A DNA stretch of 38,408 nucleotides, taken from positions 1-38,408 of the forward strand of contig JAMWZF010000002.1 in NCBI GenBank assembly GCA_024304875.1. Direction: 5' to 3'. The position numbers and the translations under genes were made by a program. Positions 8,218 to 21,799 of the stretch are shown piece after piece. Under the pieces are notes generated by a model, which was not told the origin of the DNA, searched no databases, and saw nothing but the letters and a program-made list of their open reading frames with translations. This stretch comes from Paracoccaceae bacterium (GTDB lineage Bacteria; Pseudomonadota; Alphaproteobacteria; Rhodobacterales; Rhodobacteraceae). Position 1 is the stretch's first letter. Each line of letters begins with the position of its first letter.

Positions 8218-10226
8218 TTTTCGATCCACGCCCCCGTGGTGGGGGCGACGGCCACCGATACCGAATGCTGCGCGACCGAGTAGTTTCGATCCACGCCCCC
8301 GTGGTGGGGGCGACACCTGATCGCCGCCATCGCCGCCTTCTTCAAAGGTTTCGATCCACGCCCCCGTGGTGGGGGCGACGTGCCATCCGGGCCAACCGTG
8401 ACGGATGTTCCCGTTTCGATCCACGCCCCCGTGGTGGGGGCGACAGGTCCCACGCCACGTCCGGGGCGTCCTCGTAGTGTTTCGATCCACGCCCCCGTGG
8501 TGGGGGCGACGGTCGCTATGACGCGGTCGTTCGCGGGTGCTCGGGTTTCAATCCACGCCCCCGTGGTGGGGGCGACCGGCATTTCGGCGGCGTCCGTCAC
8601 CGTCACGATGGTTTCGATCCACGCCCCCGTGGTGGGGGCGACCAACCGAGTTTCCGGCGTTGTCAGCATCGACGTGTTTCGATCCACGCCCCCGTGGTGG
8701 GGGCGACTTGCCCGGATCGCGTCTCGGCTTCCACCGGGCCGGTTTCGATGCACGCCCCCGTGGTGGGGGCGACTGCCGCCGCCGGACGACGGGCGGGCGC
8801 TCTGGCGGTTTCGATCCACGCCCCCGTGGTGGGGGCGACCGAAGGCGGCGTGATTGACCAGCAGGTCACGCTCGTTTCGATCCACGCCCCCGTGGTGGGG
8901 GCGACGTCTTCGGCATTTGGCAGCGCTGGAGGCGCACGAGTTTCGATCCACGCCCCCGTGGTGGGGGCGACCTGGGCGGCGCGGAACCACGTTGCCGATG
9001 AAATGTTTCGATCCACGCCCCCGTGGTGGGGGCGACCGCTCTGCCGAACGCTGGCGGGCGACAAGCTGCTGTTTCGATCCACGCCCCCGTGGTGGGGGCG
9101 ACGTCGTTTAGCTGGCCATCAGCCCCAGCAGGAACGGTTTCGATCCACGCCCCCGTGGTGGGGGCGACCCGGTCAACATGGCGGACGGTGCGGAAGGGCT
9201 TACGTTTCGATCCACGCCCCCGTGGTGGGGGCGACTCCGGATCGCGGCATAGAGGTCCGCCTTGAGGGCGTTTCGATCCACGCCCCCGTGGTGGGGGCGA
9301 CCGGTCTTGTTCAGCATCAGGTCCGTCATGCGCCGGTTTCGATCCACGCCCCCGTGGTGGGGGCGACAGGTGGTCATCGGGCCAGCGTCTGCCGCCACTG
9401 GTTTCGATCCACGCCCCCGTGGTGGGGGCGACGAGTTCGCAGGCGCTTGTCAGTGCGGCGTTGGGGTTTCGATCCACGCCCCCGTGGTGGGGGCGACCTT
9501 CATCCGGGCCTCCTTAGGTTTGCGTGTAGTTGTTTCGATCCACGCCCCCGTGGTGGGGGCGACGTGGGTCGGGGCGTGGACGGACTCGTGGTTCATGTTT
9601 CGATCCACGCCCCCGTGGTGGGGGCGACCTGCTGCTGCTCCTCCGGCGTCATGTCCTCCAGGGGTTTCGATCCACGCCCCCGTGGTGGGGGCGACATTGC
9701 CCCCTTCGTAGAGGGCTGGGGAAGGTGAAGTTTCGATCCACGCCCCCGTGGTGGGGGCGACTTCCGGTGGTCCGCTCACCGACCCCGTGATCGGTTGTTT
9801 CGATCCACGCCCCCGTGGTGGGGGCGACGGAGACCGGGGGCGTGACGTTATCACACTATGAGGTTTCGATCCACGCCCCCGTGGTGGGGGCGACGGTTCC
9901 GGCTCGGCGTGATGGACGACGGGCTGATGTTTCGATCCACGCCCCCGTGGTGGGGGCGACAAGGACACCGCTATCGAGGTCGGCGGCTTCGACATGTTTC
10001 GATCCACGCCCCCGTGGTGGGGGCGACATCCCGAACCACGCCGGAGTATTCGCAGGCAACCAGTTTCGATCCACGCCCCCGTGGTGGGGGCGACATGTGA
10101 CCGTCCGCCCACCTGTGCCGTCCTGCGTGTTTCGATCCACGCCCCCGTGGTGGGGGCGACCTGGTGTCAGACCCGCCGTGCGCATCAGCTTGTTGTTTCG
10201 ATCCACGCCCCCGTGGTGGGGGCGAC
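8218..10226 (-). CRISPR. Type I-C CRISPR array, 31 repeats/30 spacers; 32-bp repeat GTCGCCCCCACCACGGGGGCGTGGATCGAAAC (minus-strand orientation), spacers 33-36 bp
   Basis: Counted by hand: repeat units (plus-strand GTTTCGATCCACGCCCCCGTGGTGGGGGCGAC) begin at 8218, 8283, 8348, 8413, 8479, 8545 ... 10129, 10195. Variants: 8218 (first base T), 8545 (GTTTCAATCC), 8742 (GATGCACG). Orientation from cas operon position and repeat 3' end GGATCGAAAC. Confidence 0.99.
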
Positions 10227-13271: not shown

Positions 13272-15067
13272 TCGGCATCCTCCGTGTCGTCGGTGTCGAT
13301 CAGCGGTTCGGCTGCGTCCTCGGCTTTGGTGTAGAAGGCCGACATCTGGTGGTAGAAGCCGATGAAGAAACGTCCCTGTTCTTCGAGTGGCAGGGCCGAG
13401 GGAAGGTTTCCGCCGCCGGGCAGCAGGCTCAGGATCGCACTTATAGCGCGGTCTGCCTTGACTCCCGACCCGGCTTTTTGCCCGCCCGCCTTGTGCATGG
13501 CCGCCAAGTTGTGTTCGTAGCCCCGCATCAGCACCGGGAAGACCCGGGCAGGGGTGGCCGAAGCGGAGGCCATGTATTTCGCGCGCAGGCTCGCGCCCCG
13601 CTCCTGATAGCTGCGCTCGGCATAGGCGTAGGCGGCAAAGAGCCGCCCCAGCAGGTAGGCCGGTTCTTCGGTTTTTTCGTCCAGGGACACGGGCACCTCC
13701 AAATTAAGGTTGCGTTTCAGAACGGCGCGGATCATCGCCGCGCGGCGGCCGTCCAGGTTGCCGTGGCGGGCGCGGTCGGGTTCACCTTCTACCCGTAGTC
13801 GGCCGATGACTGCGGGCAGCAGCGTGGCAGGGTAAGGGTCTTGGGTCAGGATGGCGCGCATCAGCTCGCCGCCCAGCTTGGCCGGGATGTTCTTCTCATC
13901 GCGCTGTGCCGCAAGATCATAGAGCAAAGCCCAGGGTTTCGGCGGCACCGCAATACCGTCCCGCTGAAACGGTGAGGGCCCGATTGAACAGTCATCCCAA
14001 AACCGGCGGGCGGCGCGGGCCAGGTCTCCCACCGTTCCGGGCAGCCAATAGCGCACCGAAAGGCGGGCCGCGTTGGGCGCGAGTCCCAAGACATAGAACC
14101 GGGTGGCGGGGGTCAGCACCTCATCAGGGCGCGGTTGGCCCTCGGCAAGGGCCGTAAGCCGGGCGGCAAGTTCGTTCTCTGCCTTGCCATCCTGGCCACT
14201 CGCGCTGGCGAATATCGCGGACATGGCGTTCTCGGCAGCCTCCTCGCCCGCTCCTGACGCCCAGAACACCACCGTGTCGCCGCCGATTCGCAGATTGTTG
14301 CCCGAGCCACGCGCAAGAAGCGCGTTCAGCGCGGTGCCGTAGGCGAAAGCGGCGGCCTCGGACACCGGGGCGTTGTCGCCCTGTTTCTTGCCGTGTGAGG
14401 TTTCCGCATCGTTGTTGAACGACACCAGCGACGCGCCGGAGGATTGGGCCCCCATGACGCCCTTGACGGTGGGATGCAGCCTTGCGACGGGCGCCCGATT
14501 GCCGGTGACAAGGCACATTACCTCACCCTCGCCCCCGTGGTCGAGAAGCACCCTGGCGGCGGGCAGGTCATGCAGGAACTTGCCCCGGTCCAGTCGAAAC
14601 ACCAGGTTCTGGTCCACCAGCGCAGCGGCGTCGGGGAAATCAGCGAACCTCTCCGGGTCCCAGGATTCGCAATACAGGCGCAGGGCCACCAGGTCCGGGT
14701 CTATGGCCTCGGCCAGTAGGTCAATATGGGCGGCGCGGAAGGCCGCATGTTCCGCAGCGGTGCGTTTGCCCTGACCTGGCCCCTCCTCTGTTGCGGTGAT
14801 GCCGAGGGTATAGGCTGACTTGTCCCAAAAGAAGTTTGGCTTAATGCCAGCGGTTCTTTTGACTGCGGCGGGAACGGCAACAGGACGTGGCATCAGTTTC
14901 TTGCCCTTGTCATCGGGCGTCAGGAAACTGACGAATTCCGCCACAGTGCCGTCCTCTCGCAGGGTGATGACCCCTCCGATGTTCTCAGTTGAAAAGCCGG
15001 GGGAGGGCCATTCGGCGTCTTCGGCGCGGCGCTCGTAGAGCGCGGCTAGTTCTTGCAGGACGCTCAC
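13268..15067 (-). CDS. cas8c: Type I-C Cascade large subunit Cas8c (Csd1)
   Basis: [55 protein letters not shown]; likely GTG start at 15067 right after the cas5 stop. Confidence 0.95.
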
Positions 15068-15738
15068 ACCGCTGCCCCCTGGGCCAGGCATTTTCGCACG
15101 TCGATCACACCGCCCTGCATCCGCGCTCGGTAGAACACCGAGACCCGGTCATTAGCGTAGTCGATGTCATGCAGCATCCAGCCAAGATCGCGGTCCTGCT
15201 CGGCCGGGGGCAGGGCAGTCTCGGGGAAGCCCCCGACAAGTTCGAAATCCGCCGGAAATTCGCGTACGCCCAGGCAGGGCTGATGGAAACATTGGCCCTT
15301 CTCGGCCCGGCGTCGGAACATCTCGGCGTGTTTGCCGGGGTTGTCCTCGGCTCCGGCTTTTTCGGTCATCTCGAAATGCGCCTCGATCCCGTATGCGACA
15401 TTCACCAGGCACAGCATGGCGCGCTGCTGTCGGTCTTCGTCAACGGCAAGGGAAAGGCCGCTGAGATGCCCCGATTTCATTGCCGATTTCGCCTTGGTCA
15501 CGGGTATCTTGGAGGCCACCTCGTTGCGGCGGAAGGTTTCAAAGCGGATCGGCTCAAGGATATGAAGCCGGTCGATCACCCAGCGGATCGCCGGTTTCCA
15601 GTGGATCGCCTCCAGAATGCCACGGGCGGCAGAGGGGGTAATCACGTCGTAGGAGACACGTTCGACCTTCATCTCTGGCCGGGTGAAACAGGCGTTGCGC
15701 CCTCGGACGAGAAGTCGAACTCCGGTCATGGGCGGCAT
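15064..15738 (-). CDS. cas5c: Type I-C Cas5c (pre-crRNA processing endonuclease)
   Basis: [48 protein letters not shown]; alternative start at 15729. Confidence 0.96.
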
Positions 15739-15755
15739 CCAATTGAATGCCGCCC
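15730..15755 (-). promoter_or_regulatory. Hairpin over the cas5c start: GGGCGGCAT-TCAATTGG-ATGCCGCCC
   Basis: Perfect 9-bp inverted repeat; the 3' arm begins with the cas5c ATG (15738-15736). Confidence 0.6.
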
Positions 15756-15760
15756 AGTGT

Positions 15761-15834
15761 GCAGGACAAGGTCTGCTACAAGAAACAAGATTGGGTTTCG
15801 ATCCACGTTGCTCATCAGAAGAACCTTAGCAACG
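15761..15834 (-). ncRNA. Candidate CreA-like (crRNA-like) RNA: pseudo-repeat hairpin + 11-nt handle + about 34-nt pseudo-spacer
   Basis: Minus strand: CGTTGCT-AAGGTTCTTCTGATG-AGCAACG-TGGATCGAAAC-CCAATCTTGTTTCTTGTAGCAGACCTTGTCCTGC. The last 13 nt of the CRISPR repeat (CGTGGATCGAAAC, 15807-15795) are perfect; 7-bp stem abuts the handle exactly as in the CRISPR repeat. Confidence 0.75.
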
Positions 15835-15898
15835 ACGAGATGAGATATGCTAGACCCAGTACGAGTCGCAGCCATCTGTCAAAGTTACTCCATCTCAT
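15815..15898 (-). CDS. Candidate CreT-like mini-ORF, 27 aa: [27 protein letters not shown]
   Basis: ATG at 15898-15896, AGGAG SD 7 nt upstream (15910-15906), stop TGA at 15817-15815; lies directly upstream of and overlaps the crRNA-like element. Confidence 0.6.
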
Positions 15899-15909
15899 AA
15901 CAAGTCTCC

Positions 15910-15946
15910 TTCCCAATATTTTTCCTTGTGTAGACTTGTCATTCAT
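15910..15946 (+). promoter_or_regulatory. Predicted Cascade target (TTC PAM 15910-15912 + protospacer-like sequence) over the SD/5'UTR of the mini-ORF; -10-like TATTAT on the minus strand at 15950-15945
   Basis: TTC-CCAATATTTTTCCTTGT vs pseudo-spacer CCAATCTTGTTTCTTGT: identical at 14 of 17 positions, mismatches at 6, 9, 12 (and 18). Confidence 0.7.
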
Positions 15947-16006
15947 AATATCCGATCGGGCTGTTGCGAAAACAGAGTGCGACGCGTCGAGATGTCAAGG
16001 ACCTTC

Positions 16007-18229
16007 CTAGAAAACCCCGCCCAGCACGCCCAAGTCAGAGACGGCCACCCCGGCGCGGTCATCGTAGTGTTCGGTCCCGATCAGCAGGGCGAATTGGTCG
16101 CCAAATCTGTCCGGGGAGAACCATTCAACCAGCCCAGTGTCCCGCAGTTGCTGCCAAAGCTTGAATGGCAGGTTGACCGTATGAGGCCGCAGCAGGCGGG
16201 CCAGGGCGCCAGGACTGCCATACCGCGCCTTTTCCAACTGGTCCGGATCGACGCCGAAGTGGCCGTCGACCACCGTTATCGTTGGTTGGCCGTCATCGAT
16301 GATGCGGAAGGCGGCTTCAAGTTTCTCGAAATGGCACTCTGGACCCCAAGCGCCAATCGAATTCAGAATACCCGTCGTCTTGACAGCGGTTCCCACCGTC
16401 CTGCTGTCGAGCGCCGCCGCGCCATAGGTGTCCCACAGCTTATGGAAATAGAGACTGACCGCGTCCCGGCCGATCGGATCACCACCGCCGATTTCAGCGA
16501 GCGTCTTTCGACCAATTTCGGCAAATTGTTCCAGAGCCGGCGGCGGGTCGTGCTCCGGGCGGAAAACCTCGACCCTGCCAACACCGGGCAGCTTGCCCTC
16601 TCGGTTGCAACGGCCCGCTGCCTGCGCGATGGCGTCGATCCCGGCGGCGGCGCGCAGGACAACGGGGAAATCCACGTCCACCCCGGCTTCGATCAAGGAC
16701 GTCGAAATCAGCCGCACGGGGCTGCCATCCTTTAGCCGATGGCGGACCTCGTTCAGCACCGCGGTCCTATGTGACGGGGTCATCAGCGTGCTGAGATGGC
16801 AGGCACCGGGTGCGTCTCTGACAGCGTCGAACAGCATTCGCGCCTGCATCCGGTTGTCCACGATCAAGAGCGCCCGCGGTTCGGATCGCATCCTTTCGGC
16901 CAGGGCGGCGTCGCTCATCTCGCCGACGTCCCGCACCTCGACCCGCCGCAGCCGATTGAACAACGCGTCGGGGTCCGGGGCGATTTCTCGGGCTCCGGTC
17001 AGCGCCTCGGGCGCCGGAAACCCACCTTCGGCAGTCAGGGAGGGTTGTGTCGCGGTGGACAGGACAATGCTGCAACCGTAGCCGTCGATCAACTCGCTGA
17101 GGGCCGCAAGGCAGGGCCGCAGGAGAGGCAGGGGCAGCGTCTGCGCCTCGTCCAGGACCACAACTGACCCTGCAATTGCCGGCAGTTTCCGACAGCGCTT
17201 CTTGCGGGCGGCGTAGAGGCTTTCGAAGAACTGTACGGATGTCGTGACCACCACCGGCACGTCCCAGCTGGCGCCCATGATGCTGCGCTGTTCTTCTTCG
17301 CTTTCGTCTTCTCCGGCCCAATCTGCATTTGTATGGTGTTCAAGAACAGCCTCGTCTCCCAAGACCTCCCGAAAGACACTGGCTGTCTGTTCAATGATCG
17401 AGGTGAAGGGTATCACATAGATCAGACGTCGCAGCCCGTGGCGCAGGGCGTGGTCCAGACCGAACGCCATAGAGGTCAGTGTCTTGCCCCCACCTGTCGG
17501 CACGGTCAGGGTGAACAGCCCCGGCGATTGCTGCGCCACGTCGCGGGCATGGGCCAGGATCTGACGCCGCATGACATTGATGTCGCTGCCTCCCGTCATT
17601 GCGGCCATGTGCCTGTCGAATTTGCTGCGCATGATTTCGGTCAGCTCTGTGGGTCGCCGAGTTGTCTCCTTGTGTGCAATTGCGTCGTAGAAGGCCGCAG
17701 TCTCCCGGTCGTCGGCGTCGGTTAAAGCACCATACAGCATGCGCACCAAAAACTGGAGCCGGAATGGCCTATTCCTCCTAGACGCCGGTTCCGTCAGCCG
17801 ACCGGGCAAGGTGATCGTAGGTACGTCACACCAATCCGGCAGAACTAGCCTTTCGGCTGCTTCGATACGCCGCCGCAACCGGTCCGGATCGGGCAGGCGC
17901 CCGTGATGTCCGGCGATAGTTCCGGCTAGGAGCAGCGCCGCGCCGCCCATGTCATGGAGGACACGAGCACCCTCTCCGGAATGGGAAACGTCGCTTCGGG
18001 CACCCTTCAAACTTGGGCGGAGCTTAGCCTGAAATTCAGGTTTTAATTTGCCTAAGTCATGTAGCATGCCCAATACGCGCCCGATATCCCCGGCTCCAAA
18101 GGAATCGGCCCTGCGTTCTGTAGCTCTTGCCACATTAACTGAATGGGTTTCCAGAGATTCCCATTCGGCCTCTGGTCGCCCGGGAACGCTATGGGCAAAT
18201 GCCTTCAATCGACTCTGATCCACTCGCAT
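16007..18229 (-). CDS. cas3: Type I-C CRISPR-associated helicase/HD nuclease Cas3
   Basis: HSVNVARAT..LGMLHDLGKLKPEFQ, AGHHGRLPD (HD domain), VPTGGGKTLTSMAFGLDHAL, VVVLDEAQTLP, STSLIEAGVDVDFP..QAAGRCNREG; start probably 18229 or 18244 rather than 18412. Confidence 0.96.
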   Translation of the reverse strand: MRVDQSRLKAFAHSVPGRPEAEWESLETHSVNVARATERRADSFGAGDIGRVLGMLHDLGKLKPEFQAKLRPSLKGARSDVSHSGEGARVLHDMGGAALLLAGTIAGHHGRLPDPDRLRRRIEAAERLVLPDWCDVPTITLPGRLTEPASRRNRPFRLQFLVRMLYGALTDADDRETAAFYDAIAHKETTRRPTELTEIMRSKFDRHMAAMTGGSDINVMRRQILAHARDVAQQSPGLFTLTVPTGGGKTLTSMAFGLDHALRHGLRRLIYVIPFTSIIEQTASVFREVLGDEAVLEHHTNADWAGEDESEEEQRSIMGASWDVPVVVTTSVQFFESLYAARKKRCRKLPAIAGSVVVLDEAQTLPLPLLRPCLAALSELIDGYGCSIVLSTATQPSLTAEGGFPAPEALTGAREIAPDPDALFNRLRRVEVRDVGEMSDAALAERMRSEPRALLIVDNRMQARMLFDAVRDAPGACHLSTLMTPSHRTAVLNEVRHRLKDGSPVRLISTSLIEAGVDVDFPVVLRAAAGIDAIAQAAGRCNREGKLPGVGRVEVFRPEHDPPPALEQFAEIGRKTLAEIGGGDPIGRDAVSLYFHKLWDTYGAAALDSRTVGTAVKTTGILNSIGAWGPECHFEKLEAAFRIIDDGQPTITVVDGHFGVDPDQLEKARYGSPGALARLLRPHTVNLPFKLWQQLRDTGLVEWFSPDRFGDQFALLIGTEHYDDRAGVAVSDLGVLGGVF

Positions 18230-18391
18230 GGTCTTCCCTACCATCGACTTTTTATTCTCACCACTAATTGGAATTCCCGTGCTCTGTGCAATAGAGAACT
18301 TCAGCAACACGGGCTCTGTCGCAAGAACCGGGTGATAGCTGAGGCTCTCCGTTTCCCTGTCGAAGTTAACCCCACAGCTTCCGTGACGGCT

Positions 18392-18513
18392 AAACTGCCA
18401 TGAAAACGGCAAGGCGCGTGCGCATCTGATCGTGGCTGCAGTATTGTAAGCGTTTCACCGATGCGTCCTTGACCGCAAGGTTCATCCCTTCGACCTACTG
18501 TTGGTCCCCTCAG
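18392..18513 (-). pseudogene. Relic of an IS481-like/rve-family transposase C-terminal region
   Basis: Minus-strand translation VEGMNLAVKDASVKRLQYCSHDQMRTRLAVFMAV* resembles the conserved VERMNRTIKDATVKRFxYxSHDQLRxHLxxFxAAYN motif; upstream in-frame TAG and probable frameshift. Confidence 0.65.
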
Positions 18514-18721: not shown

Positions 18722-19699
18722 ATGAGCCGTATGTCACTAGCCAAAATTGGACTCGCTGCGGGCCTGACAGCCGCAGCCGCCACCACAGCAATTGCGCAAG
18801 ATTTCCCGAACGAACCGGTAACCCTTACGGTTCCTTTCTCGCCCGGTGGGTCCAACGACATCGTCGCTCGACAACTTGGCCTGCAGTTGTCAGAGCAATG
18901 GGGTCAGCCCGTTGTAGTTGAGAACCGCCCCGGTGGCGGCGCCACGATCGGCTCGGCTCATCTTGCCCAGCAGGACCCGGACGGGTACAACATCATGATT
19001 GCCTCGGTGACGTTCACCATGAACGCCGCCGTGCGTGACGATCTGCCCTTTGATCCGCGCGCCGACTTCACACCTATTGCCCTGATCGGACAGGTGCCGC
19101 TGGTGATCGGAGCCAAGCCCGACATCGAAGCAACGGAGCCTGAGGCCTTCTTCGACTATATCCGCTCCAACGACGACCTCAGCTACGGGGCCACTGGCGT
19201 CGGGTCGATCCAGCATTTCGCGGGGGAGCTGCTAAACCAGGCCGTCGGGTCTAACGTGCAGGTGGTTCAGTACCCGGGTGGCGGCCCCGCCATGACTGAC
19301 GTCATGGGCGGCTTCATCGAGTACTCGATCGGGTCGATGACACAGATGCTGCCGCAGGTGGAGGCGGGCAACATCACGCCCATCGCCATCACCAGTCTCG
19401 AGCGGTCTGACGCCATGCCCGACACGCCGACACTGGCGGAGAGTGGTCTTGACGATTTCGAGGTCATCCAATGGTGGGCAATCCTCGGCCCGGCAGGCAT
19501 GGATGAGGCTCGTGTCGAAGAATTGAATTCCGCGATCAACGAGGTACTCGAGACTGAGCAATTCGCCGAGTTCCTCGCCAATGACGGCGGCACCCCGCGG
19601 CCGATGAGCGCGCAGGAGACCGCGGATTTCATGGCCATGAATTTCGACCGCTGGGTCGAGGTCGCCGAACAGGCTGGTATGAAGGACCAGGCTGAGTAA
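18722..19699 (+). CDS. tctC: Tripartite tricarboxylate transporter substrate-binding protein (TctC/Bug family)
   Basis: FPNEPVTLTVPFSPGGSNDIVARQLGLQLSEQWGQPVVVENRPGGGATIGS.. Confidence 0.95.
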   Translation: MSRMSLAKIGLAAGLTAAAATTAIAQDFPNEPVTLTVPFSPGGSNDIVARQLGLQLSEQWGQPVVVENRPGGGATIGSAHLAQQDPDGYNIMIASVTFTMNAAVRDDLPFDPRADFTPIALIGQVPLVIGAKPDIEATEPEAFFDYIRSNDDLSYGATGVGSIQHFAGELLNQAVGSNVQVVQYPGGGPAMTDVMGGFIEYSIGSMTQMLPQVEAGNITPIAITSLERSDAMPDTPTLAESGLDDFEVIQWWAILGPAGMDEARVEELNSAINEVLETEQFAEFLANDGGTPRPMSAQETADFMAMNFDRWVEVAEQAGMKDQAE

Positions 19700-19824
19700 A
19701 GCCCAATTGCAAGACGCCCCCGGATGCAGTTTCGGGGGCGTCCTTCTTTCAGCTTCCGCGTTTACATCGGAACTGACACCAATAGGGGGCGGTCTGCCGC
19801 CCGATCCATCAGGGGAAATTTTCC

Positions 19825-20271
19825 ATGCCGCGGATCGATCCGGTCGAGGCAATGTCGGGCCTTCTGGTCCTGGCCCTTGGCGCCTTCTTCTACTTCGGGT
19901 CGATGGGCTACCCCATGGGAACAATCGGCCGGATGGGCCCCGGCTTCGTGCCGCATTGGCTCGGCGCGCTGTCCATGTTCCTCGGTGCGGTGATCCTGCT
20001 GTCTAGCCTGAGAACCAATGAGCCGGCACCCGATCTATATTGGCGGCCACTCGTCGCCGTCCTCGCCTCCATTGGAGCCTTCGCGTTGCTGCTGCCCCGC
20101 ATTGGCCTTGTCGGCGCGGCGCTGGTTACGGCCGCGATCTCGATCCTCGCTAACCGCGAGGCAGGTTGGCGGATGCTGGCTATAACCTCGGCCGCCATCG
20201 CGCTTATTTGCTGGGTCCTCTTCGTACTGCTTCTGCGTCTACCGATCCCGGCCTTCTGGTGGGACCTCTGA
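19825..20271 (+). CDS. tctB: Tripartite tricarboxylate transporter TctB family protein
   Basis: Small 4-TM protein between tctC and tctA; YPMGTIGRMGPGFVPHWLGALSMFLGAVIL. Confidence 0.88.
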   Translation: MPRIDPVEAMSGLLVLALGAFFYFGSMGYPMGTIGRMGPGFVPHWLGALSMFLGAVILLSSLRTNEPAPDLYWRPLVAVLASIGAFALLLPRIGLVGAALVTAAISILANREAGWRMLAITSAAIALICWVLFVLLLRLPIPAFWWDL

Positions 20272-20272
20272 G

Positions 20273-21799
20273 ATGGACATCTGGGCCAATATCGCGAGCG
20301 GCTTCGACGTCGCCTTCTCGTCGCAGAACCTGATGTACTGCTTTCTAGGGGTCTTTCTAGGGACGTTTTTTGGTGCGCTGCCCGGGATCGGGTCGCTTGC
20401 GGCGGTCTCGATGCTGCTGCCAATCACCTTCTACCTCGACCCGACCACGGCGCTCGTCATGCTGGGCGGGGTCTACTACGGGGCGGAGTACGGCGGGTCG
20501 ACGTCCTCGATCCTGCTCAACCTGCCGGGCACACCGTCGAATGCCGTCACCTGCCTCGACGGCTACCCGATGACCCAGCAGGGGCGGTCAGGCGTCGCCC
20601 TCTTCGCCACCACGATCGCCAGCTTCTTTGGCGGTACCTTCGGCATCCTAATGCTCTACTCACTGGCGCCGCTGATCGTGCAATGGGCACTGCAATTCGG
20701 ACCGGCGGAGTATTTCGCCATCATGGTCTTCGGCCTCGTCGCAGCCGCGACGGTGACCCAAGACGCGCCGGCTAAAGGCCTAGCCATGGTCGTCGCGGGA
20801 ATGATGCTCGGTACGATCGGGGCGGACCTGAACACCGGCATTGCCCGTTTCACCTTCGGCTACTTCGAGCTTCACGAAGGGATCAGCTTCATTGCCTTGG
20901 CGATGGGCCTGTTCGGGGTGAGTGAGGTGATACTATCGATCGGACACAAGATCGACAAACCCTTCATCCAGGCGGTGACCTTCCGGTCCATGATCCCCCG
21001 CCGGGACGAAGTGCGCCGGTCCGGGATGCCGATGCTGCGCGGCGCGGGGCTCGGCGCCTTCTTCGGCGCGCTGCCGGGGACCGGTCCCTCCATCGCCACC
21101 TTCATCGGCTATGCCATTGAGAAGCGTCTGTCCAGGCACCCCGAGGAATTCGGAAAGGGCGCGATTGAAGGCATCATGTCGCCCGAAAGCGCCAACAACG
21201 CCGCCGTCCAGTCGGCCTTCATCCCGACCATGACCCTGGGCATCCCAGGCAGCGCCACGATGGCCGTCATGATGGGTGCGCTGCTGATTCACGGCATTCA
21301 GCCAGGTCCGCAACTGATGCAGGAGAATCCTGACATCTTCTGGGGTCTTGCCGCGAGCTTTTGGATTGGCAACGTGATGCTGCTGGTCCTCAACATTCCG
21401 CTGATCGGCGTCTGGGTCCGACTGCTCAAGATTCCCTACGGCATCCTCTACCCGGCGGTACTATGCTTCATCTGCATCGGCGTCTACACGGTGCGGACCA
21501 GCGCTTTCGACGTCGTGCTTGTCCTTCTCTTCGGTTTTGCGGGCTTTGTCCTGCGTCTGCTTCGCTTCGAGCTGGCGCCGCTGCTGATCGGTTTCATCCT
21601 CGGACCGATGGTTGAGGAGAACTTCAAGCGGGCGATGCTAATCTACCGCGGCGACTTCACCGAGTTTCTGACCAGACCGATCAGCGGTTCCCTACTAGCA
21701 TTGACCGCCCTGCTCCTAGTCTGGACGACGTGGGTGATCTTGCGCGACAGCCGCAGGAAGCGGCCGGTGGACCACCCGATGGGCGAGGCGGATGACTAG
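20273..21799 (+). CDS. tctA: Tripartite tricarboxylate transporter permease TctA
   Basis: FLGTFFGALPGIGSLAAVSMLLPITFYLDPTTALVMLGGVYYGAEYGGSTSSILLNLPGTPSNAVTCLDGYPM. Confidence 0.97.
   Translation: MDIWANIASGFDVAFSSQNLMYCFLGVFLGTFFGALPGIGSLAAVSMLLPITFYLDPTTALVMLGGVYYGAEYGGSTSSILLNLPGTPSNAVTCLDGYPMTQQGRSGVALFATTIASFFGGTFGILMLYSLAPLIVQWALQFGPAEYFAIMVFGLVAAATVTQDAPAKGLAMVVAGMMLGTIGADLNTGIARFTFGYFELHEGISFIALAMGLFGVSEVILSIGHKIDKPFIQAVTFRSMIPRRDEVRRSGMPMLRGAGLGAFFGALPGTGPSIATFIGYAIEKRLSRHPEEFGKGAIEGIMSPESANNAAVQSAFIPTMTLGIPGSATMAVMMGALLIHGIQPGPQLMQENPDIFWGLAASFWIGNVMLLVLNIPLIGVWVRLLKIPYGILYPAVLCFICIGVYTVRTSAFDVVLVLLFGFAGFVLRLLRFELAPLLIGFILGPMVEENFKRAMLIYRGDFTEFLTRPISGSLLALTALLLVWTTWVILRDSRRKRPVDHPMGEADD

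What the first reader, a model, noticed from the sequence alone, without database searches (positions are those of the whole stretch)
15795..15834. Degenerate CRISPR repeat with covaried stem: different sequence, same structure
CRISPR repeat (minus strand): GT-CGCCCCC-ACCAC-GGGGGCG-TGGATCGAAAC. Element at 15834-15795: CGTTGCT-(15 nt)-AGCAACG-TGGATCGAAAC. Both have a perfect 7-bp stem closing with C-G/G-C exactly adjacent to the 11-nt handle, though the inner stem sequence is different. This is what one expects if Cas5c processing is under selection; a random repeat fragment would not keep a stem.
Basis: seen in the sequence. Interest (0 to 1): 0.85.

Follow-up and report, generated by a model that had tools for sequence, protein, structure and literature searches.

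The report
CRISPR-guided toxin switch, type I-C
Between two CRISPR genes of this bacterium lies a decayed mini-CRISPR whose guide RNA appears to aim the cell's own CRISPR machine at a nearby promoter and so silence a tiny toxin-like peptide gene, which would punish any cell whose CRISPR system is lost or blocked.

Summary
In detail: at 15834-15795 (minus strand) an ectopic CRISPR repeat keeps the 11-nt handle of the type I-C array and a perfect 7-bp stem of different sequence. The handle is followed by a guide whose first 17 nt match, beside a TTC PAM, a site about 120 nt upstream in the same cas3-cas5 gap (mismatches at 6, 9, 12), the only exact site in the genome. In 127 type I-C loci, consensus handles occur in 0 of 74 short gaps and 28 of 53 long gaps. 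In 26 loci guide and target match at 1-5, 7-11 and 13-14 while 6 and 12 are at chance, the CreA/Cascade seed pattern, and guide and target co-vary between relatives. Between them usually sits a short ORF with a Shine-Dalgarno and a hydrophobic or amphipathic product (27 aa here), conserved at protein level in one family. Best reading: a CreTA-like, CRISPR-repressed toxin-antitoxin of type I-C. Characterised toxins of this kind act as RNA or as a KilA-N protein; a peptide toxin would be a new variant. Some loci (L105-L107) lack the ORF and look like pure CreR autorepressors. Processing, repression and toxicity are untested.

The parts
15913..15946 (+). Target (protospacer) of the guide; PAM TTC at 15910-15912; nt 15913-15929 pair with guide positions 1-17 except 6, 9, 12
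   Evidence: Score 23 of 25 in own gap; 1 of 1482 swapped pairs reaches 22; only exact site in the genome for PAM plus guide masked at 6, 9, 12
15915..15942 (-). Promoter-like site ATGACA-16-AATATT inside the target (candidate creT/cas5 promoter; another -10-like TATTAT lies just upstream at about 15945-15950)
   Evidence: Consensus scan only, 1 found against 0.3 expected; not evidence of function by itself
15906..15911 (-). Shine-Dalgarno AAGGAG of the small ORF, overlapping the complement of the PAM
   Evidence: Sequence; duplex energy with anti-SD about -8 kcal/mol (which subtracts 1 for ATG)
15815..15898 (-). Small ORF, candidate cre[28 protein letters not shown] (27 aa plus stop); stop codon lies in the loop of the psiR1 stem
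   Evidence: SD-led hydrophobic ORF in 1 of 500 shuffles; gapless end-to-end similarity to the ORF of L005 (shuffle p<=0.001)
15806..15834 (-). psiR1 stem-loop (7 bp, arms 15834-15828 and 15812-15806, loop 15 nt)
15795..15805 (-). psiR1 handle TGGATCGAAAC, identical to the array repeat 3' end
15761..15794 (-). Guide (psi-spacer) CCAATCTTGTTTCTTGTAGCAGACCTTGTCCTGC; 5' 17 nt (15794-15778) are the pairing part
15729..15756 (-). Hairpin TGGGCGGCATTC-AATT-GGATGCCGCCCA, a psiR2-like second stem without handle; overlaps the start of cas5c
   Evidence: z -4.85, 0 of 200 shuffles fold as well; 20 of 26 loci have a significant hairpin downstream of the guide
15064..15738 (-). cas5c (repeat nuclease and Cascade subunit); true start probably 15729
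   Evidence: TIGR01876, E 8.3e-50; homologues align from residue 4-6
16007..18412 (-). cas3 (ORF from TTG; HD and helicase)
   Evidence: TIGR01596, TIGR01587
10403..15091 (-). cas8c, cas7c, cas4, cas1c, cas2
   Evidence: TIGR01863, TIGR02589, TIGR00372, TIGR03640, TIGR01573
8218..10226 (-). Main CRISPR array, repeat GTCGCCCCCACCACGGGGGCGTGGATCGAAAC

Best explanation
A CreTA-like, CRISPR-repressed toxin-antitoxin module of a type I-C system. Shown in sequence: a mini-CRISPR (psiR1, guide, hairpin psiR2) next to cas5c; a guide whose 5' 17 nt match a TTC-flanked site in the same gap with the Cascade seed pattern; and an SD-led 27-aa ORF between target and guide. Inferred: Cas5c releases the guide at the base of the stems; Cascade (Cas5c-Cas8c-Cas7) loaded with it binds the target, which covers the promoter or 5' leader and reaches the ribosome site of the ORF, and blocks transcription; pairing ends at about nt 17, too short for Cas3 cleavage. 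If Cascade is lost, mutated or held by an anti-CRISPR, repression ends and the ORF is expressed; its product, more likely the peptide than the RNA, harms the cell, perhaps at the membrane. The same promoter probably also feeds cas5-8-7-4-1-2, so the guide may set cas expression as well.
For: Ectopic handle only in long gaps: 28 of 53 against 0 of 74. Guide-target match in own gap 24 of 39 at score >=20 against 3 of 1482 swapped pairs; match at positions 6 and 12 at chance (0.31, 0.19) while 1-5 and 7-11 are 0.85-1.0, the same seed as CreA (PMC8501985). Guide and target change in step in L105/L106/L107 and L017/L018/L152. Unique target in the genome. SD-led hydrophobic ORFs between target and guide in 11 of 20 loci against 0.8 in shuffles. 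Peptide of L017/L018/L152 conserved with third-position divergence, NG86 dN 0.26-0.40, dS saturated above 2. psiR1 keeps handle and stem, psiR2 keeps a hairpin, as described for CreA repeats (PMC9458426). Same arrangement of mini-ORF with SD downstream of a guide target in the I-F CreTA (PMC10097628).
Against: No toxicity, transcription or processing data. Position 9 of the window seed is mismatched, a position that was essential in H. hubeiense CreA (PMC8501985). The window peptide has only weak pairwise homologues (E 0.04). About half of the 53 long gaps lack a recognisable guide, and 13 of 39 handle-bearing loci lack a clear TTC target. In known CreTs the mini-ORF acts as RNA, not protein (PMC10097628). 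The target may equally serve cas autorepression.
Confidence: 0.66

Rival explanations
1. CreR-type autorepression only: the guide directs Cascade to repress the promoter of cas5-8-7-4-1-2, adjusting cas expression to crRNA supply and anti-CRISPRs; the small ORF is incidental or a leader peptide.
For: cas5-cas2 follow on the same strand with no terminator-like site in between. L105, L106 and L107 have target, -35-like TTGACG and guide only 84 nt apart with no ORF. CreR is reported as widespread in type I systems (PMC12737573).
Against: SD-led ORFs occur in 14 of 20 loci with room against 2.6 in shuffles, 11 with a hydrophobic product against 0.8, and one ORF family is under amino-acid selection. 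A pure regulator does not need a 70-200 nt insert with such an ORF.
Confidence: 0.25
2. The toxin acts as RNA, as in characterised CreTA: the mini-ORF transcript sequesters a tRNA or initiation components and the peptide is a by-product.
For: All characterised CreT mini-ORFs act as RNA, shown by synonymous mutation (PMC10097628; PMC8501985). The strong SD fits the known mechanism.
Against: ORFs here are 26-69 codons rather than 4-11, share hydrophobic or amphipathic composition across unrelated sequences, and in L017/L018/L152 third codon positions diverge (10-11 of 31 identical) while the peptide is kept.
Confidence: 0.25
3. Relic or mimic: a decayed array remnant, or a solitary anti-CRISPR repeat (Racr/SRU-like), with no guide function.
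For: The repeat is strongly degenerate outside the handle; the window stem is not thermodynamically exceptional by itself (z -1.21); RacrIC1 shows that I-C repeat mimics exist (PMC10651486).
Against: Recurrence at one place in dozens of loci, guide-target covariation and the seed periodicity; it lies inside the host cas operon.
Confidence: 0.04

Closest known systems
CreTA (CRISPR-regulated toxin-antitoxin; type I-B haloarchaea and type I-F Acinetobacter; type VIII TA)
   Same: Mini-CRISPR between cas genes; psiR1 with kept handle, degenerate psiR2; guide pairing at 1-5 and 7-11 with a PAM-flanked site near the promoter of an SD-led mini-ORF; TTC PAM as in I-B.
   Different: Type I-C, so Cas5c and not Cas6 would process it; ORFs of 26-69 codons with hydrophobic products, one family under amino-acid selection, whereas characterised CreTs are RNA toxins with mini-ORFs of 4-11 codons; here the ORF ends inside the psiR1 stem-loop.
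CreR (crRNA-like RNA that autorepresses cas operons, type I and V-A)
   Same: Same guide anatomy; cas5-cas2 lie downstream of the targeted site; ORF-less relatives L105-L107 look like CreR.
   Different: In the window and most long-gap loci a small ORF sits between target and guide.
CrePA (CRISPR-repressed protein toxin CreP with KilA-N domain)
   Same: A translated toxin repressed by Cascade with a CreA guide is the logic proposed here.
   Different: No KilA-N or other known domain; products of 26-69 aa, not a domain-sized protein.
Racr / solitary repeat units
   Same: A single CRISPR repeat-like unit outside an array; a I-C example, RacrIC1, exists (PMC10651486).
   Different: Here in the host cas operon, with a guide and a matching target; no sign of mobile-element origin.

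Membership tests
CreTA | Repeat-like psiR next to cas genes with conserved handle | tested here: met
CreTA | Guide with partial (seed) complementarity to a PAM-flanked site near the toxin promoter | tested here: met
   9 of 10 seed positions plus 13-17, TTC PAM; unique in genome; group-level swap control. Exact promoter not established
CreTA | Second degenerate repeat (psiR2) in most members | tested here: met
   Hairpin z -4.85 in the window, 20 of 26 loci; handle lost, so structure only
CreTA | SD-led mini-ORF downstream of the target | tested here: met
CreTA | CreT is toxic, as RNA | not testable with these tools
   Needs expression with synonymous and frameshift variants; amino-acid-level conservation points to a peptide instead
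CreTA | Cascade plus CreA represses creT; loss of cas is harmful | not testable with these tools
   No expression data
CreR | Guide targets the promoter of the cas operon | tested here: inconclusive
   cas5-cas2 downstream without a terminator-like site; transcription start unknown
CreR | No toxin gene coupled | tested here: not met
   An ORF with toxin-like features is present in the window (toxicity unproven); the feature is met in L105-L107
CrePA | KilA-N domain protein toxin | tested here: not met
   No Pfam or NCBIfam family above cut-off
Racr / solitary repeat unit | Phage- or plasmid-borne repeat, not associated with cas genes | tested here: not met
   Inside the host cas operon

The most novel reading that the evidence does not exclude
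A family of CRISPR-repressed toxin-antitoxins in type I-C in which the toxin is a short membrane-active peptide; in the window and some relatives its stop codon lies inside the loop of the guide's own processing stem, so that translating the toxin could compete with Cas5c maturation of its antitoxin guide. The same gap serves as a pure CreR autorepressor in other clades.
Probability: 0.35. Interest if true: 0.68.

Novelty: new variant of a known kind. Interest (0 to 1): 0.56.

Why it matters
Type I-C is among the commonest CRISPR subtypes, and none of the CreTA/CreR papers I could read mentions it. If right, about a fifth of the I-C loci sampled (26 of 127 with guide plus target) hold a built-in guard that punishes loss or anti-CRISPR inhibition of Cascade. 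That would help explain the persistence of these systems, matter for their use as editors or repressors, and offer an anti-CRISPR sensor. Dozens of independent guide-target pairs give a natural test of how little Cascade pairing suffices for repression without cleavage, and of whether CreT-like toxins can be peptides.

Tried and rejected
Nearest-relative comparison failed: the closest Cas5c relatives (L003/L021, L022; 82-84% identity) have a 90-nt gap without the element, and L020 has a handle without a detectable target. The genus holds only this genome. Rfam has no family here. Pfam gives only a sub-threshold YgaP-like TM hit to the window peptide (E 0.043, below cut-off), which I treat as hydrophobicity. 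A first ORF control missed the window because its start lies too near the target edge; repeated with 20 nt more for loci and shuffles alike. An intrinsic terminator at the 15729-15756 hairpin is not supported (no terminator-like site); a translational role at the cas5c start remains possible. The systematic survey of crRNA-like elements that I recall (Shmakov et al. 2023, NAR) is not held, so I do not know whether it lists I-C examples; the Science 2021, Cell Host Microbe 2023 and Nat Chem Biol 2025 papers of the CreTA/CreR/CrePA group were known to me only through citations.

Full report
What was claimed and what is there. The window holds a complete type I-C operon on the minus strand: cas3 (to 16007), cas5c, cas8c, cas7c, cas4, cas1c, cas2, and the main array at 8218-10226. 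The claimed element lies in the 268-nt gap between cas3 and cas5c. The handle TGGATCGAAAC is exact and is its only copy outside the array; 0.02 copies are expected by chance in the window. The 7-bp stem with a 15-nt loop abutting it is real and was not reached in 100 shuffles, although the folding energy of the whole element is unremarkable (z -1.21).

The guide. After the handle comes CCAATCTTGTTTCTTGTAGCAGACC. On the plus strand at 15910 the gap reads TTC CCAATATTTTTCCTTGT: a TTC PAM (the established I-C PAM, from general knowledge) and 14 of 17 matches, with mismatches at 6, 9 and 12. In the whole genome held this is the only exact site for the PAM plus the guide masked at 6, 9 and 12. In type I Cascade every sixth guide base is flipped out (general knowledge), and in the two characterised haloarchaeal CreA RNAs the required pairing is 1-5 and 7-11 with 6 and 12 free (PMC8501985). 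The window departs from that rule at position 9.

Homologous loci. I collected Cas5c loci: 136 unique loci in the main analysis, 127 with a measurable cas3-cas5 gap. Gaps are of two kinds: 74 shorter than 170 nt, none with a consensus handle, and 53 longer, 28 of them with one. For 39 long-gap loci with a handle (one substitution allowed), the best TTC-flanked match of the guide within its own gap scored 20 or more (of 25) in 24; among 1482 swapped guide/gap pairs 3 did. Over the 26 loci scoring 18 or more, matches per position are 0.88-1.0 at 1-5, 0.85-0.96 at 7-11 and 0.92 at 13-14, but 0.31 at 6 and 0.19 at 12, and they fall towards chance after 17. Positions 6 and 12 were not scored, so their drop is not built in; a recent duplication would match there too. 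Choosing the best site inflates the scored positions somewhat; the swap control measures that effect. Two further loci (L038, L083) match fully beside TTT instead of TTC.

Co-variation. In relatives of one genus the guides TGATGTTTTTG (L107) and TGGCAATCTTG (L106) face targets TGATGATTTTG and TGGCAATCTTG, changed in step. L017, L018 and L152, which share a peptide family, have three different guides, each matched to its own target. This is the strongest evidence that pairing is under selection.

Repeat structure. A stem abutting the handle is significant in 16 of 31 loci, and stem sequences differ widely (CACAGCCGA/TCGGCTGTG in L010, CGTGTGATTGG/CCGATCACACG in L005, CGACCGGTG/TGCCGGTCG in L106) while the handle is kept. 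A second significant hairpin follows the guide in 20 of 26 loci, mostly 21-38 nt after the handle; in the window it is a 12-bp stem with z -4.85. This is the pattern described for CreA, where psiR1 keeps the Cas5-binding handle and psiR2 loses it (PMC9458426), here in a system where Cas5c, not Cas6, cuts the repeat.

The small ORF. Between target and guide lies [27 protein letters not shown] (15898-15815), with AAGGAG seven bases before its ATG. It ends in the loop of psiR1. In 20 loci with room for it, 11 have an SD-led ORF with a hydrophobic product against 0.8 in shuffles (maximum 3 in 100 rounds); for the window alone 1 of 500 shuffles does. Products differ between clades. The window peptide aligns end to end without gaps with that of L005 (38% identity, shuffle p<=0.001; BLAST E 0.04, so weak alone), and L005 resembles L026 (E 8e-4) and L010. 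L017, L018 and L152 encode clear homologues (MRVFPPKPSRMLEIGLECLALALRLVLKLLP, MNLKPPKPSSTIEMLLECLALALRIALKFFP, MNFRPPKPPPATEALLECIALALRLALKLLQ), with 20-26 of 31 identities at first and second codon positions but only 10-11 of 31 at third positions, dN 0.26-0.40 and saturated dS. Selection there acts on the amino acids. Several of these peptides, the window's included, would form amphipathic helices with net positive charge, as membrane-acting small toxins do (inference).

Mechanism. Cas5c would release the guide; Cascade would occupy 15913-15946, over the promoter candidate ATGACA-16-AATATT and up to the SD, and keep the ORF silent. Loss of Cascade would free it. As cas5-cas2 follow on the same strand, the guide may also hold down cas expression. 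In H. hispanica, removal of the creTA region cut downstream cas transcription by 72-93% (PMC9458426), so a promoter shared between such a module and cas genes has precedent. Shown: anatomy, conservation, covariation. Inferred: processing, repression, toxicity, the toxin's target.

Relation to the known. It works like CreTA and meets its sequence criteria. It is not filed as a proven member because toxicity and repression are untested, and it departs in subtype, processing nuclease and likely nature of the toxin. L105-L107 show that the same site can carry a CreR-like device without ORF. D. vulgaris Hildenborough, a model I-C system, has a 13-nt gap and no module. I found no paper in the held library that describes CreTA or CreR in type I-C, but key papers are not held, so priority is not established.

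Noticed in passing
window 15729-15738 (-): The cas5c ORF opens at 15738 (MPPMTGVRL), but homologues align from residue 4-6, so the true start is probably the ATG at 15729. That start sits at the edge of the 12-bp psiR2-like hairpin with no clear Shine-Dalgarno, so hairpin processing might affect cas5c translation.
   Followed up: partly
L105, L106, L107 (gap before cas5c): Guide and target with a TTGACG -35-like hexamer but no ORF in the 84 nt between target and handle: a likely pure CreR autorepressor at the same position.
   Followed up: partly
L059:5636-5945 (Shinella daejeonensis): The ectopic repeat has the same sequence as the array repeat, guide-target pairing is weaker (8 of 10) and the ORF between looks interrupted by a TGA: possibly a module with a broken toxin.
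   Followed up: no
L038 (Inquilinus limosus) and L083 (Pararhodospirillum oryzae): Guide matches all 10 seed positions of a site in its own gap, but beside TTT rather than TTC: possibly a different PAM tolerance.
   Followed up: no
L033, L041, L096, L038: Target lies on the coding strand (same strand as the guide) instead of the opposite one, so strand orientation of the target is not fixed.
   Followed up: no
L070:5461-5688 (Chelonobacter oris): A 75-aa soluble-looking ORF with a Shine-Dalgarno (MSKNQHVVPHPEGWAVKGDGNAKATAVYSTQEKAISRAEEIARNQKSDTKVHGLDGRIRAGNSYGNDPHPPKDKK) lies between target and guide, unlike the hydrophobic peptides elsewhere: another cargo may be repressed there.
   Followed up: no
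window 18722-21799 (+): Divergent genes upstream of cas3 that read like a tripartite tricarboxylate transporter (TctC-, TctB-, TctA-like); not checked against any library.
   Followed up: no
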